A stretch of 35,502 bases of DNA, from the NCBI GenBank assembly GCA_001823575.1, contig MHUW01000018.1, positions 1 to 35,502 on the forward strand, written 5' to 3'. How positions within the stretch are numbered: the first letter of the stretch is position 1; each line of letters begins with the position of its first letter. The DNA comes from Candidatus Yonathbacteria bacterium RIFCSPLOWO2_01_FULL_47_33b. GTDB taxonomy: Bacteria; Patescibacteriota; Minisyncoccia; Phycocordibacterales; UBA1550. The notes below the pieces were generated by a model. It worked only from the letters and a program-made list of their open reading frames with translations, was not told where the DNA came from and made no database searches. Shown piece after piece: positions 897-33,861 of the stretch. The translations under genes were made by a program, and so were the position numbers.

Positions 897-2630
897 ATGA
901 ATTACTTAATCTACGGCCGAGTCTCTACTTCTCGTCAGGCCGAACGAGAATTGAGTATTCCAGCGCAGGTCAAAGCATGCCAAAAGTACGGCATGGATCA
1001 CGGTTGGAATCTTGCACCTGATGGCATCTATGAAGAAAAGGGCGAATCGGCTCGTACCGTTGAACGTCCACAGCTCCAGAAAATGCTTCACCGGGCAAAG
1101 ACTGATAACAAGATCGATGCGATTCTGATGCACAAACTTGATCGTATGTGTCGCAACGTCGCAGACTATGCGGCGATCAAAATGATGCTCAAAAAGCATG
1201 ATGTTCGATTGATCTCGGTGGTCGAGCAATTCGATGAGTCTTTCTCCGGAGAGCTGGTTGAGAACATCATGTCATCGATCGCTCAATGGACGTCCCAGAA
1301 CATCAGCTGGGAGGTCAGAAAGGGTCTCAAAGAGGCCGTAGAGCGTGGCAGGTTCCCTGGATACGCTCCTATTGGTTATATGAACGATAGGAAGACCAAG
1401 TCTCTGATCGTTGACAATGTCCGAGCTCCGTATGTGAAGCTTGGATTTGAACTCTATGCAACCGGCAAATTTTCTTACTACACACTCGGTGATGAATTGG
1501 CAAAGCGTGGTCTCAAGAGCAAGGCCAGCAAGCGTGTCTCAAAGAAAGGCGTTGAGAGGATGCTTCAAAACACGATCTACTATGGTCTTATAAAAACGAG
1601 ATCGGCCACTAATCAGGCAAACTTCCCGTCGCTCATCACTAAGAAGTTGTTCGATGACGTGCAGGAGATTATCGCCCAACACAATCATTATGCGGATCGA
1701 TCTCGCAAACACACGTTTCCACTTACCGGCTTTATGCGATGTGGTTATTGCGGTTCTATGTTGAGTGGTCAGGTGAAAAAGGGTCACCTGTACTATAACT
1801 GCTCCCACCGGCGTGATGCCAAGTGTCCGGAAAGAAAGTACACACGATCCGAGCTCATTGAGGAACAGGTGGTGGCATATCTCTCACGAGTCGAATTACC
1901 ACCTAAGTTCAAGACGGTCTTGGATGCGTACTTCCAACACTTTGCAAAAGAGCGTATGGATCAGGAGGAAAACGAACGTAAGAGTATTAAACACGACCTG
2001 ATCAGAGTGCAACAGCAAATCCGCAACATCGTTGTAGATCGTTCAAAACGCATCATAGACGCAGAGGTCTTTATAAAGATTCAGGACGAGCTTCTTAAGG
2101 AAAAAGAGATGTATCAGGATCGCTTATCTGAGCTTGAAGGTAAGTCAGACAAATTTGTACAGAAGTTCAATGAGCTTCTTGACTTCACGGATCATGCCGA
2201 CGAGGTGTACCAAAAGAGTGGTACGAGTCAGAAGCGAACGGTGCTAAAACTTTGCATTGATGGATTTACTGTTAGAAATCAAAAACTGACGCCGATATGG
2301 ACGCCAGTCTTTGATGTTCTTATGGATTTACAATTGTCCAAATTCGATCCCCCAAAAGTCGGCGGCAAGGGTTCTAAAACCGCCTCAAAAACCCTTGCCG
2401 TACCTAAGGTTCTAACTTGGACATCTGGCGGAGAAGGAGGGATTCGAACCCTCGATGCCGTCTCCGGCATGCCTGATTTCGAGTCAGGTCGATTCAACCA
2501 CTCTCGCACTTCTCCTAGAAAATCACCTCAAAAAGAGGCCCCCATCAAAGTAGCATTTTTTTGCATTTTTGGCAAAAATTGGTATACTGCACAAGTATTT
2601 TTGATTCTGGCCCCATCGTCTAACGGTTAG
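897..2630 (+). CDS. Large serine recombinase (resolvase + recombinase + zinc ribbon domains); the C-terminal end beyond ~2340 is probably not native
   Basis: YGRVSTSRQ catalytic-serine motif, ILMHKLDRMCRN, zinc ribbon CGYCGSMLSG...YYNCSHRRDAKC, coiled-coil C-terminus. ORF runs through an antisense tRNA-Ser. Confidence 0.9.
   Translation: MNYLIYGRVSTSRQAERELSIPAQVKACQKYGMDHGWNLAPDGIYEEKGESARTVERPQLQKMLHRAKTDNKIDAILMHKLDRMCRNVADYAAIKMMLKKHDVRLISVVEQFDESFSGELVENIMSSIAQWTSQNISWEVRKGLKEAVERGRFPGYAPIGYMNDRKTKSLIVDNVRAPYVKLGFELYATGKFSYYTLGDELAKRGLKSKASKRVSKKGVERMLQNTIYYGLIKTRSATNQANFPSLITKKLFDDVQEIIAQHNHYADRSRKHTFPLTGFMRCGYCGSMLSGQVKKGHLYYNCSHRRDAKCPERKYTRSELIEEQVVAYLSRVELPPKFKTVLDAYFQHFAKERMDQEENERKSIKHDLIRVQQQIRNIVVDRSKRIIDAEVFIKIQDELLKEKEMYQDRLSELEGKSDKFVQKFNELLDFTDHADEVYQKSGTSQKRTVLKLCIDGFTVRNQKLTPIWTPVFDVLMDLQLSKFDPPKVGGKGSKTASKTLAVPKVLTWTSGGEGGIRTLDAVSGMPDFESGRFNHSRTSPRKSPQKEAPIKVAFFCIFGKNWYTAQVFLILAPSSNG
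2426..2515 (-). tRNA. tRNA-Ser(CGA), CCA encoded
   Basis: Reverse complement GGAGAAGTGCGAGAGTGGTTGAATCGACCTGACTCGAAATCAGG...GGTTCGAATCCCTCCTTCTCCGCCA; anticodon stem CCTGA/TCAGG with loop CTCGAAA; long variable arm. Confidence 0.95.
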
Positions 2631-2680: not shown

Positions 2681-2859
2681 CAAAGCGCAGGGTCCAAAAT
2701 GTGATAACATTTTGCGCTTTGTGAAGCCGGAGCTATGCCGAGGCTTTGCGAGGCAGCGAGGTAGGGTCGTGAGCACTTAGGCTTTTGTGAGCAAAGCGAA
2801 CAAAAGACTTAGTGACTCCTGACACAAGCAGGATGAGGGTGCGAAGCACTCAATCATTT

Positions 2860-4583: not shown

Positions 4584-4644
4584 AGTTATGTTTAAGTTTA
4601 TAAATTCCAGATGATATTTGCAACGGGGCCCACACTTAGAGCGA

Positions 4645-4739
4645 GCCTTTCTCTTTTTTAGTGCCTTGCGCAAGGGCGACGGCCCGAGCAGAGCAATTTT
4701 TCAGCAGAAAAATATGCGTGCACTAGAAAAGAGAATGGC
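4645..4739. repeat. Structured intergenic repeat, R-family copy A
   Basis: GCCTTTCTCTTTTTTAGTGC...GCACTAGAAAAGAGAATGGC outer stem with internal CTTGCGCAAG and ATTTTTC-AGCA-GAAAAAT hairpins; 90/95 positions shared with 10121..10215 by eye. Confidence 0.85.
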
Positions 4740-4748
4740 GAGTGACCT

Positions 4749-5966
4749 TTATTTTTTGCGGCGAAGGAATGCTGGCACAGCGCTCCAGTCTTCATCAACC
4801 TCGTTTTCAAGATCAATGATAGCGACCGGCTCTTTGTCGGTGAGATCTATCTTTGTAGGGGTCTGCGCCTCGGCGACATCGCGCGTAACTTCAACTTTTT
4901 TAGGCTCGCGCTCAATCATTGTGTTGTGAATCTCGCGCTTTTCGCGAATCTCTTCACGGCTCGGTGTTGCGGGTTTTGCTGCTCCAGAAAAAAGATTTTT
5001 CTTTTCAATGCCCTCAGGGAATCCTGAGGCGATAACGGTGATTTTAATCTCGTTTTTCTTGAGTTTGTCATCATGAATGGCACCGAAAATGACGCGTGCT
5101 TCAGGGTCGATTGAGTCAGTAATAATCTTTGCTGCCTCTTGAATCTCATGCATGCGGAGGTCGTCGCCACCAGCGATAGCAAAGAGAACACCTTTTGCCC
5201 CTGATACCGAGAGGTCGAGAAGGGGAGAGTTGATAGCTGCGAGGGCTGCTTCTTGAGCACGGTTTTCGCCACTCGATGAGCCGATACCAAGGAGTGCCGA
5301 GCCTGAGTCCGAGAGAATCGCACGAATATCGGCAAAGTCGACATTGATGATACCTGGCGTGGTAATAAGATCAGAGATACCCTCAACCGCCTGGCGGAGA
5401 ATCTCGTCGCTCATCGTGAATGCTTCCTTGAAGGTAGTGTCTTTGCTTGCAGCAGAGAGAATACGGTCGTTAGGAACGACAATGAGTGCATCTACTTGTT
5501 TGCGAAGTTCATCAAGACCTTGTTCTGCGAGTCTGCCACGGTGAGAACCTTCAAAAGAGAATGGACGAGTGACAACACCAATAGTGAGCGCGCCTTGTTC
5601 CTTTGCAATAGCCGCGACGACAGGAGCCGCACCAGTGCCCGTACCGCCACCCATACCGCCGGCAATAAAGACCATATCAGCACCCTTGATGACACCCTGG
5701 ATTTCCTCTTTGGTTTCCTCGGCTGCCTTGCGACCAATCTCAGGATTCATTCCCGTACCGAGTCCACGAGTGAGGTTTTTCCCAATGTGAATTTTTTTCT
5801 GGGCGAGTGAGTGATGAAGATCTTGTGCGTCAGTATTCATAACAATGAACTCAACGCCTTTGATCTTTGAGCTCACCATGTGATTCACGGCATTCTTACC
5901 GGAACCGCCAACACCAATAACCTTAATGCGCGCGAATGCTTCTACTTCGGGTTCTACTTTTGCCAT
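4749..5966 (-). CDS. ftsZ: Cell division protein FtsZ
   Basis: [31 protein letters not shown] tubulin signature, [13 protein letters not shown]. Confidence 0.97.
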
Positions 5967-10073: not shown

Positions 10074-10120
10074 ATTTTTTATTTTATCACATTACCATCA
10101 GATTCACCATCTTGGAGTGA

Positions 10121-10215
10121 GCCGTTCTCTTTTTTGGTGCCTTGCGCAAGGGCGACGGCCCGAGCAGAGCAATTTTTCAGCAGAAAAATATGCGTGCACC
10201 AGAAAATAGAATGCC
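10121..10215. repeat. Structured intergenic repeat, R-family copy B
   Basis: GCCGTTCTCTTTTTTGGTGCCTTGCGCAAGGGCGACGGCCCGAGCAGAGCAATTTTTCAGCAGAAAAATATGCGTGCACCAGAAAATAGAATGCC; near-identical to copy A. Confidence 0.85.
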
Positions 10216-10224
10216 GAGCAGACT

Positions 10225-11556
10225 CTATTTCAATTCTTCTTTGAGATGCTTTACAAAATCGGGGAGGTTGGCGAGAGTGACGGTTTCTTGTGAACGGGTC
10301 TCCATATTGCGGACGATGACGGTGTTGTCGAGCGCTTCTTTTTGACCAAAGATGATGGTGTAAGGGACACCCATACGTTCTGCAATGGCGAGCTGTTGAC
10401 CAAGGCCATCTTTTGAAAGTGATTGTGCGAGAGGGATGCGCGCCTTGCGAAGAGTCTCGATAATCGTGAGACTCTTCAATCGTGCGTCAGAGCCGAGTTG
10501 GATGAAGTACACCTTTGGCTTTTTGATGATGCGCGGATCAAGCTGTTTGTGGGAAGGCGACATAAGGACGCGATCGACACCAATACCACCACCGACACCA
10601 GGAACTTCTTTTTTAGAACCCAGTGCGTGAGCGAGGAGGTCATAACGACCACCCGATGCAATAGTGACGGGCTCAGAAGTCTCTGTGCCAGGGTTGCCGA
10701 GGTCAAGGATTTCGAATACGGTGCGCGTGTAATAGTCGAGACCACGAACAAGATTGTTGTTGATGTGGTAGGGGATGCTCATCGCCTCGAGGTACTCGAT
10801 AACCTCCTTGAAATGGTGACGGCAGTCATTGCAGAGTGAGTCGATAGGAGTAGGAGCCTCAGCTTTTGGTCCCTGACAGCGCTCGTCCTTGCAGTCGAGA
10901 AGGCGAAGAGGATTGGTCTTGATACGCTCTTTGCAGTGCGGACAAAGTTCGTTCACATGTTTTTTGTAATAGTTGGTGAGCTCACGGATGTAGCCCGAGC
11001 GACATTCTTTGTCACCAATGCTGTTGATTTCAACTGAAAGATTTTTGAAACCTGCTTCCTCAAGGACGAGGGTCATACTACGAATGACGAGGGCGTCCAT
11101 AATACTTTTACTTGAACCAAGTATTTCAAAACCGAACTGACGAAACTCGCGCAAGCGTCCGCGTTGAGGATTCTCGTGGCGGAAGTATGGCCCATAGTAA
11201 TAGAGCATCACTGGTTGAGGAAGTGCTTGCATACCGTTCTCGATATACGCACGCATAACCGCCGCGGTGCCTTCGGGGCGCATCGCAAGATGGTCGCCAC
11301 CCTTGGTCTTGAGGACGTACATTTCCTTGTCGCGAATGTCGGTGCCGACACCGAGGCTCGAGGTAAACACCGCTTCGCGTTCGAGGATAGGGGTTTCAAT
11401 AGGACGGAAGCCGTAGTAGATGGCGACGTCGGATGCTTTTTCAAAAAAACCTTGGTAGGCGTAGTACTCCTTTTCCATGAGGTCGCGCATTCCTTTTGGG
11501 CTCGCGATGTCCTCGGATTTCAACTTCTTTGCCTTCTCTGGTTTTTCGGTGGTCAT
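10225..11556 (-). CDS. hisS: Histidyl-tRNA synthetase
   Basis: PKGMRDLMEKEY, RPEGTAAVMRAYIENGM, GRLREFRQFGFEILGS, LVRGLDYYTRTVFEI. Confidence 0.96.
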   Translation of the reverse strand: MTTEKPEKAKKLKSEDIASPKGMRDLMEKEYYAYQGFFEKASDVAIYYGFRPIETPILEREAVFTSSLGVGTDIRDKEMYVLKTKGGDHLAMRPEGTAAVMRAYIENGMQALPQPVMLYYYGPYFRHENPQRGRLREFRQFGFEILGSSKSIMDALVIRSMTLVLEEAGFKNLSVEINSIGDKECRSGYIRELTNYYKKHVNELCPHCKERIKTNPLRLLDCKDERCQGPKAEAPTPIDSLCNDCRHHFKEVIEYLEAMSIPYHINNNLVRGLDYYTRTVFEILDLGNPGTETSEPVTIASGGRYDLLAHALGSKKEVPGVGGGIGVDRVLMSPSHKQLDPRIIKKPKVYFIQLGSDARLKSLTIIETLRKARIPLAQSLSKDGLGQQLAIAERMGVPYTIIFGQKEALDNTVIVRNMETRSQETVTLANLPDFVKHLKEELK

Positions 11557-30039: not shown

Positions 30040-30118
30040 GTCCTGGACGTTAGACTTGAACCCTCAAGGATCACTCCATACGCTTCTCAATTACCAAATT
30101 GACCTACTGGGTGAATCA
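30040..30118 (-). pseudogene. tRNA-Leu-like remnant (anticodon-position GAG), D-arm/anticodon 5' half deleted
   Basis: Reverse complement ...TTGAGAAGCGTATGGAGTGATCCTTGAGGGTTCAAGTC aligns with tRNA-Leu(CAG) CTCAGAAGCGTATCCCGTAAGGGTTGGGAGTTCGAGTC. Confidence 0.45.
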
Positions 30119-30165
30119 GCTGATTCGCATCTTGGATGTAAACGACGTACGCATTCTGAACTGGG

Positions 30166-30441: not shown

Positions 30442-30554
30442 GCACCCCAGTAGGATTCGCCTCTTCCTTCGGTCGAGACTATCCATTTTGTAGCGATTCG
30501 AGAATACTCTCATCGCCAAAATGGTGAGCCTACGGTTCGAATCCTATTGGGGGC
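30442..30554. repeat. tRNA-3'-end-mimicking hairpin element P1 (next to tRNA-Lys)
   Basis: GCACCCCAGTAGGATTCG...CGAATCCTATTGGGGGC arms match tRNA-Lys T-arm/acceptor; core TCGCCTCTTCCTTCGGTCGAGACTATCCATTTT shared with P2. Confidence 0.8.
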
Positions 30555-30601: not shown

Positions 30602-30677
30602 TGGTGCCCCCAGTAGGATTCGAACCTACGACCGTCTCGTTAAGAGCGAGCTGCTCTACCAACTGAGCTATAGAGGC
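30602..30677 (-). tRNA. tRNA-Lys(CTT), CCA encoded
   Basis: GCCTCTATAGCTCAGTTGGTAGAGCAGCTCGCTCTTAACGAGACGGTCGTAGGTTCGAATCCTACTGGGGGCACCA. Confidence 0.93.
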
Positions 30678-30813
30678 ATATATTTACTAATCTAACTCTA
30701 TCACTTTTCTGTGCCTACCAAAGTTTATGGCCGAGCCACGAATCAGCTGATTCGGCGATAGAGGCATTTGGTACTTGAATTATTATACACAAAAAACGAA
30801 GAAAGGGAAGTAG

Positions 30814-30919
30814 TGCCCGGGGTGGGACTCGCCTCTTCCTTCGGTCGAGACCATCCATTTTAATAGTCGCTATGCTCCTTTAAAATGTGGGGCCTCTGGT
30901 TCGAGTCCCACCCCAGGCA
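30814..30919. repeat. tRNA-3'-end-mimicking hairpin element P2 (next to tRNA-Leu(TAA))
   Basis: TGCCCGGGGTGGGACTCG...CGAGTCCCACCCCAGGCA arms match tRNA-Leu(TAA) 3' end; core TCGCCTCTTCCTTCGGTCGAGACCATCCATTTT shared with P1. Confidence 0.8.
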
Positions 30920-30937
30920 TCTCGCTCTGCTTATTTG

Positions 30938-31018
30938 TGCCCGGGGTGGGACTCGAACCCACATATCTTTCGATGGGAAATTTTAAGTTTCCTGTGTATA
31001 CCATTCCACCACCCGGGC
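30938..31018 (-). tRNA. tRNA-Leu(TAA)
   Basis: GCCCGGGTGGTGGAATGGTATACACAGGAAACTTAAAATTTCCCATCGAAAGATATGTGGGTTCGAGTCCCACCCCGGGCA. Confidence 0.93.
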
Positions 31019-33581: not shown

Positions 33582-33623
33582 AACTATACCTTATTTTTCG
33601 ATATTTTGCAAAAGAGGCCGCTC

Positions 33624-33767
33624 GGCATTCTATTTTCTGGTGCACGCATATTTTCTTGCTAGAAAATTGACTCCAAGAGCGAATCAGCTGATTCGTCTGC
33701 TCGCCTCTCATTCAGCAGAATGACTAACTGGGTCCAGGCTGCGCAAGGCACCAGAAAATAGAATGCC
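33624..33767. repeat. Structured intergenic repeat, R-family copy C (inverted orientation, longer)
   Basis: GGCATTCTATTTTCTGGTGC...GCACCAGAAAATAGAATGCC perfect 20 bp stem, ATTTTCT-TGCT-AGAAAAT hairpin. Confidence 0.85.
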
Positions 33768-33861
33768 TCGCTCCAAGGAGGAATACAGTGGTAATTTGTT
33801 GTTTGTGGCAAAAAGAAAACCGCCTCGTCAGAAAGACCGAAGTGGTTTTCTGTGAAGCGGT

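What the first reader, a model, noticed from the sequence alone, without database searches (positions are those of the whole stretch)
30814..30919. P2: second element with the same core but arms matching tRNA-Leu(TAA)
TGCCCGGGGTGGGACTCG...CGAGTCCCACCCCAGGCA (18 bp, one mismatch) copies the 3' end of tRNA-Leu(TAA), 18 bp away. The core TCGCCTCTTCCTTCGGTCGAGACCATCCATTTT differs from P1 at one position, and the inner stem CATTTTAA/TTAAAATG differs while keeping position. Arms track the tRNA while the core is constant, so arms were acquired locally (target-primed copying or template switching) or maintained to act on that tRNA. On the minus strand P2 lies directly downstream of tRNA-Leu and could base-pair with it.
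Basis: partly seen in the sequence, partly recalled or inferred. Interest (0 to 1): 0.85.

Follow-up and report, generated by a model that had tools for sequence, protein, structure and literature searches.

The report
tRNA-linked repeat behind tRNA-Leu
Just behind a leucine tRNA gene of a tiny Parcubacteria-type bacterium sits a ~105-base hairpin element that ends in an exact copy of that tRNA's own tail; the same layout follows many other tRNA genes across this bacterial phylum and matches the unexplained 'tRNA-linked repeats' known in E. coli since 1978.

Summary
P2 (30813-30919) has an 18-bp inverted repeat around a core shared with P1. Layout on that strand: tRNA, spacer, antisense copy of the tRNA 3' end (X'), core, second sense copy (X). 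X starts at the T-loop C56|R57 junction. A third copy lies elsewhere in the genome. The P core ('A') occurs in 22 of 299 genomes of the order, patchily. A second core ('B', also at 2703-2844) occurs in 234 of 299 genomes and in other Patescibacteria classes. Arms match the local tRNA. Cores covary and keep G.U pairs on the tRNA-sense strand; in B, where it was counted, the arms show no strand preference and look like plain copies. This is the layout of E. coli tRNA-linked repeats (TLR), checked here in K-12, with unrelated cores. Verdict: a new, phylum-wide variant of a known but unexplained kind. Most likely a small element that settles at tRNA 3' ends, its arms rewritten from the target, its core kept for its single-strand fold. 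Mobilising machinery and any sRNA role are unproven.

The parts
30937..31018 (-). tRNA-Leu(TAA), the target gene; its first 19 plus-strand bases (30937-30955) are the near copy of the direct repeat
   Evidence: ARAGORN and Rfam RF00005; direct repeat D4
30920..30936 (-). 17-nt spacer between tRNA-Leu and P2 (many other copies carry a terminator-like palindrome here)
   Evidence: sequence; other copies
30898..30919 (-). X': antisense copy of the tRNA-Leu 3' end, 22 nt, 95% complementary
   Evidence: the repeat finder I10, I18
30832..30897 (-). P2 core (type A): GGC/GTC stem, ATTTT/AAAAT stem, variable tip, then CTCGACCGAAGGAAGAGGC
   Evidence: alignment A2, pair counts, model R1
30813..30831 (-). 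X: far sense copy of the tRNA-Leu 3' end (T-loop to acceptor end), 19 nt, 100% identical to 30937-30955
   Evidence: the repeat finder D4
30602..30677 (-). tRNA-Lys(CTT), target of sister element P1
30555..30601 (.). P1 spacer with a two-way terminator-like palindrome (AAAAAAGCAGGG-AAGATA-CCCTGCTTTTTT)
   Evidence: read directly; not picked up by the consensus scan
30534..30554 (-). P1 X': antisense copy of the tRNA-Lys 3' end, 21 nt, 95% complementary
   Evidence: the repeat finder I11
30460..30533 (-). P1 core (type A)
   Evidence: the repeat finder D2; alignment A2
30445..30459 (-). P1 X: far sense copy of the tRNA-Lys 3' end (15 nt)
   Evidence: sequence; (14 nt exact from R57)
2703..2844 (+). 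type B element downstream of tRNA-Glu(TTC) 2609-2681; arms here are short and do not copy the T-arm
   Evidence: model R2, 92.2 bits, E about 1e-26

Best explanation
P2 is a tRNA-linked repeat (TLR-like element): an insertion unit placed at the 3' end of tRNA-Leu(TAA). Shown: on the tRNA strand the order is tRNA - spacer - X' (antisense tRNA 3' end) - folded core - X (second, exact tRNA 3' end); X starts at the T-loop C56|R57 junction; the tRNA stays intact; the same cores sit behind many different tRNAs with arms matching each. Inferred: the core spreads between tRNA genes as a small non-autonomous element. Each new copy is made by DNA copying that switches templates at two self-complementary points, the trailer/terminator hairpin and the universal T-loop TTCGAA, so the arms are rewritten from the new target. 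The core is kept because it must fold as a single strand of tRNA-sense polarity, as a read-through RNA or as single-stranded DNA. Some copies may also be processed into small RNAs, as reported for the E. coli RrA/B/F TLRs.
For: 19-nt exact direct repeat plus 18-22 nt inverted copy. Third genomic copy with arms of tRNA-Lys(TTT). 63 element-tRNA pairs: identity of the far copy extends 5' of R57 by exactly one base (C56) in 55 and by at most one in 62, and runs 3' to position 73 or beyond. X' matches own tRNA 8.1/10 vs 5.4/10 for others. At the orthologous tRNA-Leu(TAA) site congeners carry A, B, or a degenerate/near-empty tail; some named Parcubacteria sites look empty. Tandem duplications of the unit (L215, L223). 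A is patchy, 22/299 genomes and 14/165 genera; B is in 234/299 and in other classes. Core covariation: A 0.313 vs 0.182 shuffled, B 0.416 vs 0.166, 0/500 shuffles reach either. Core strand polarity in B: G.U 148 vs A.C 13, arms 34 vs 33. E. coli K-12 TLRs re-examined here have the same layout with a T-loop junction; TLR definition in PMC8144298.
Against: No mobilising enzyme identified. No strain-level before/after pair with conserved flanks on both sides was found; the empty sites come from different species. Occupancy at some tRNAs is high (most congeners at tRNA-Leu(TAA)), which also fits a host function. The template-switch step is inferred from anatomy alone. Strand polarity of the arms was counted for B only, not for A.
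Confidence: 0.55

Rival explanations
1. Host-functional RNA: the unit is transcribed by read-through of the tRNA and processed into a stable small RNA, or it serves tRNA 3' maturation/termination. The second tRNA 3' end provides the 3' processing signal.
For: Conserved covarying core on the tRNA-sense strand; high occupancy at tRNA-Leu(TAA) in the genus; E. coli RrA/B/F TLRs are read-through sRNAs that bind Hfq and CsrA, with the 3' end mapped 3 nt past the repeat (PMC8144298); second terminators beyond the far copy in some loci.
Against: Unrelated cores (A, B, C and others) replace each other at the same orthologous tRNA and some sites look empty; in G000 only roughly a third of tRNAs carry one (judged by eye); arms without polarity in B.
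Confidence: 0.27
2. REP-like elements mobilised by a Y1 (RAYT-type) transposase that acts on single-stranded hairpins.
For: Y1_Tnp genes in 14 of 16 same-genus genomes and co-occurrence with B across the order, odds ratio 2.9, p=3e-4; imperfect strand-specific hairpins with a bulged A and a U.U mismatch.
Against: 77 B-bearing genomes lack Y1; only 2 of the 44 Y1 loci examined have B nearby, whereas REPs typically flank their RAYT gene (general knowledge); genome size and phylogeny confound the association; HUH transposition is not expected to make direct repeats (general knowledge).
Confidence: 0.1
3. attL/attR scars of integrative elements that use the T-loop of tRNA genes (tyrosine recombinase).
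For: Direct repeats beginning in the T-loop; the tRNA is kept intact.
Against: Units are 100-200 bp without an integrase; most genus genomes have a single tyrosine recombinase and no A or B element lies near those genes; does not explain X' or the conserved core.
Confidence: 0.04
4. Antisense regulator that base-pairs with and controls its own tRNA.
For: X' is complementary to 22 nt of the tRNA.
Against: X' pairs with its own far X copy in the predicted fold; no strand polarity in B arms; a terminator-like palindrome often lies between tRNA and X'.
Confidence: 0.04

Closest known systems
tRNA-linked repeats (TLR) of E. coli, incl. rtT/RtT of tyrT (Rfam RF00391) and rrA/rrB/rrF
   Same: Directly downstream of a tRNA; 3' end is an 18-19 nt exact copy of the upstream tRNA 3' end; copy starts in the T-loop (position 57 here, 58/59 in K-12); antisense T-arm copy before the core seen here in tyrV and lysQ; tandem repeats; cores shared between different tRNAs
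   Different: Core sequences not detectably related (R2 no hit; R1 one 16-bit hit on the opposite strand over valZ); far copy in K-12 includes the encoded CCA; here the elements span much of a phylum, often eight or more per genome, in several core families
REP / REPIN elements with RAYT transposases
   Same: Short multicopy intergenic imperfect hairpins, strand-specific fold
   Different: Tied to tRNA 3' ends with target-copied arms and direct repeats; not clustered at Y1 genes
tRNA-integrated genomic islands (T-loop att sites, tyrosine integrases)
   Same: Target tRNA intact, displaced 3' fragment as direct repeat
   Different: No cargo or integrase, 100-200 bp, inverted copy and conserved core

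Membership tests
tRNA-linked repeat (TLR) | Located immediately downstream of a tRNA/rRNA gene, same strand | tested here: met
   27 of 30 best B loci
tRNA-linked repeat (TLR) | 18-19 bp of its 3' end identical to the 3' end of the upstream tRNA | tested here: met
   19 nt, 100% (D4); definition from PMC8144298
tRNA-linked repeat (TLR) | Sequence homology of the core to E. coli TLRs (not part of the published definition) | tested here: not met
   R2 none, R1 a single 16-bit hit on the opposite strand over valZ; RtT (RF00391) does not hit the window
tRNA-linked repeat (TLR) | Transcribed by read-through and processed (shown for RrA/B/F) | not testable with these tools
   No RNA data
REP/RAYT | Repeats flank or co-occur with a Y1 transposase gene | tested here: inconclusive
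   Co-occurrence odds ratio 2.9, but only 2 of 44 Y1 loci have B within about 1.5 kb
Tyrosine-integrase genomic island | Direct repeats at the tRNA 3' end with intact tRNA | tested here: met
Tyrosine-integrase genomic island | Integrase gene inside the element | tested here: not met
   Unit of 124 bp without room for a gene; integrase loci elsewhere
Retroelement copied from mature tRNA | Far copy carries CCA where the gene does not encode it | tested here: not met
   4 of 47 only; no positive co-occurrence with RT genes
Known Rfam RNA family | Match above gathering score | tested here: not met
   Only tRNAs; permissive scan of A and B loci gave only sub-threshold hits besides tRNA

The most novel reading that the evidence does not exclude
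A phylum-wide class of minimal mobile nucleic acids in Patescibacteria whose arms are rewritten from each new target tRNA while only a folded core is inherited, spreading through the universal T-loop sequence; the E. coli TLRs are an independent or very distant branch of the same process.
Probability: 0.33. Interest if true: 0.85.

Novelty: new variant of a known kind. Interest (0 to 1): 0.62.

Why it matters
TLRs have been known in E. coli since 1978, and a 2021 paper (PMC8144298) still says that, apart from the three rRNA-linked sRNAs it describes, they have no known function. Finding the same layout in 78% of sampled genomes of a distant, streamlined bacterial order, with covarying cores and arms that follow the target tRNA, turns a curiosity of one species into a general phenomenon. 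It gives hundreds of natural replicates with which to test origin (template switching or transposition) and function (sRNA, tRNA processing or selfish spread), and it matters for annotation, since no Rfam family covers these cores.

Tried and rejected
Exact-pattern scan of public genome contigs found nothing. Rfam, gathering and permissive: no family beyond tRNA except sub-threshold matches. Integron attC idea: the GTTRRRY core site is not matched by GTTCGA; dropped on sequence grounds. One tyrosine recombinase in most genus genomes and no nearby elements: integrase idea downgraded. Y1/RAYT: weak co-occurrence, no adjacency. Reverse transcription from mature tRNA: CCA test negative, RT genes not associated. 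A strict prefix-anchored repeat count in G000 was too stringent to be informative (5/5/2 against control means 0.2/0.5/0.1). The terminator scan did not report the P1 palindrome, probably because its T-run is counted into the stem. Literature on Patescibacteria and tRNA repeats gave nothing relevant.

Full report
What was checked. The arms are at the stated places: 30814-30831 and 30902-30919, 18 nt, 94% complementary. The core is the same as in P1 but for one base, and tRNA-Leu(TAA) lies at 30937-31018 on the minus strand, 17 nt away. The fold is far better than shuffled sequence on both strands (z -7.5 on the minus strand).

The missed feature. P2 also holds a 19-nt perfect direct repeat of the tRNA: 30813-30831 equals 30937-30955 (D4). 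Read on the tRNA strand, the order is tRNA ... X (T-loop to acceptor end), spacer, X' (reverse complement of X), core, X again, downstream flank. P1 has the same order next to tRNA-Lys(CTT). A third copy, found in the same genome by pattern search, has arms of tRNA-Lys(TTT).

Setting. The genome is 718 kb in 22 contigs. Its InfB is closest to Parcubacteria/Paceibacterota genomes, and a tRNA-Cys and tRNA-Leu(TAA) also lie beside infB there.

Relatives. A pattern search found P cores in same-genus and two other genomes, nearly always behind tRNAs (Lys, Leu, Asn, Arg) with arms matching each. A covariance model of 15 A elements (R1) found A in 22 of 299 genomes, 14 of 165 genera of the order, at tRNA-Tyr, Ile and Arg as well. 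Orthologous tRNA-Leu(TAA) loci of congeners showed that other genomes carry a different core at the same place (type B in eight) and one a nearly empty tail. A model of B (R2) matched 234 of 299 genomes of the order, all 16 genus genomes with 8-33 copies each, and 27 genomes outside the class. Of the 30 best B loci, 27 lie 123-193 nt behind a tRNA or tmRNA on the same strand. Further core types were seen by eye at tRNA-Asn, Trp and Gln and in named genomes.

Geometry. In 63 element-tRNA pairs the identity of the far copy extends 5' of R57 by exactly one base (C56) in 55, by none in 7 and by two in 1, so the junction is sharp. At the 3' side the repeat ends at position 73 or runs on for up to a dozen or more bases; 26- and 33-nt repeats can be read in L220 and L232, and in L215 and L223 the unit is tandemly duplicated. 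X' matches its own tRNA at 8.1 of 10 positions against 5.4 for other tRNAs. An unbiased set of 170 tRNAs in infB loci gave 19 direct, 23 inverted and 9 with both, against 1, 0, 0 for reversed-sequence controls.

Which strand folds. The cores covary: A 89.1% of cells paired vs 81.6% in shuffles, B 88.6% vs 75.6%, with 0 of 500 shuffles reaching either. Both cores hold an almost invariant G.U pair on the tRNA-sense strand (14 of 15 each). Over 106 distinct B elements the core helices hold 148 G.U but 13 A.C mismatches (98 of the G.U come from the one invariant pair; 50 vs 13 without it), while the arms hold 34 and 33. So the core is selected as a folded single strand of tRNA-sense polarity, RNA or ssDNA, and the arms behave as plain copies of the tRNA. 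This count was made on B only; A was not counted in this way. The B alignment was fitted to the model's structure, which leans towards pairing but should not favour G.U over A.C by this much.

Comparison with known things. The paper PMC8144298 describes E. coli tRNA-linked repeats: 22 genes at ten loci whose last 18-19 bp equal the 3' end of the upstream tRNA or rRNA, with no known function apart from three rRNA-linked sRNAs. I re-examined K-12: far copies of 19 nt (tyrV) and 18 nt (argQ, lysV, lysQ) begin at T-loop position 58 or 59, and an antisense T-arm stretch precedes the core in tyrV and lysQ. Thus the layout is the same while the cores are not: R2 finds nothing in these K-12 loci, and R1 gives one 16-bit hit (E 0.01) on L270 1572-1645, opposite strand, which lies over the valZ tRNA rather than a TLR. 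RtT (RF00391) hits the tyrT region but not the window. P2 therefore meets the published TLR definition; homology with the E. coli set is not shown.

Mechanism. Shown: anatomy, target matching, T-loop junction, fold and its polarity, patchy presence, tandem units. Inferred: arms are rewritten at insertion, most simply by template switching at two self-complementary points (trailer/terminator hairpin and T-loop TTCGAA). Copying from mature tRNA is disfavoured, as only 4 of 47 far copies behind genes lacking CCA carry it. RT genes do not positively co-occur with B (odds ratio 0.64, p 0.12). Y1 transposase genes co-occur weakly (2.9, p 3e-4) but 77 B genomes lack them and only 2 of 44 Y1 loci have a B nearby. 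A host sRNA role, as in E. coli RrA/B/F, remains open.

Limits. No RNA data and no strain-level polymorphism. Element counts depend on covariance models trained on the genus with shortened calibration, and the order and phylum searches score only a capped number of candidates per genome, so copy numbers there are lower bounds. Occupancy in G000 was judged by eye.

Noticed in passing
window 897-2630 and 2426-2515: A serine-recombinase-like ORF (MNYLIYGRVSTSRQAERELSIPAQ...) whose 3' part overlaps tRNA-Ser(CGA) on the opposite strand: possible integrated element at tRNA-Ser.
   Followed up: no
window 30690-30770: A degenerate copy of the tRNA-Lys 5' part (GCCTCTATCGCCGAATCAGC...TGGTAGGCAC, minus strand) upstream of tRNA-Lys(CTT); similar GCGCCCATAGCTGTTTTGGTAG stretches precede tRNA-Lys in several congeners (L075, L080, L083).
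   Followed up: no
window 30113-30128, 30738-30753, 33681-33696: Short palindrome GAATCAGCTGATTC recurs in the window near tRNAs and at one other place.
   Followed up: no
window 4635-4754, 10111-10230, 33606-33777: A 120-nt repeat (90% identical pair) with inverted relatives and the motif GCACCAGAAAATAGAATGCC.
   Followed up: no
L025 and L022 (type A elements): Two A elements carry an extra inserted hairpin domain of about 60 nt in the core.
   Followed up: partly
L215 and L223, downstream of tRNA-Arg and tRNA-Met: Units duplicated head to tail behind one tRNA.
   Followed up: partly
G000 contig C1 55701-56202 (L202): Three tandem B elements without a recognised tRNA beside them.
   Followed up: no
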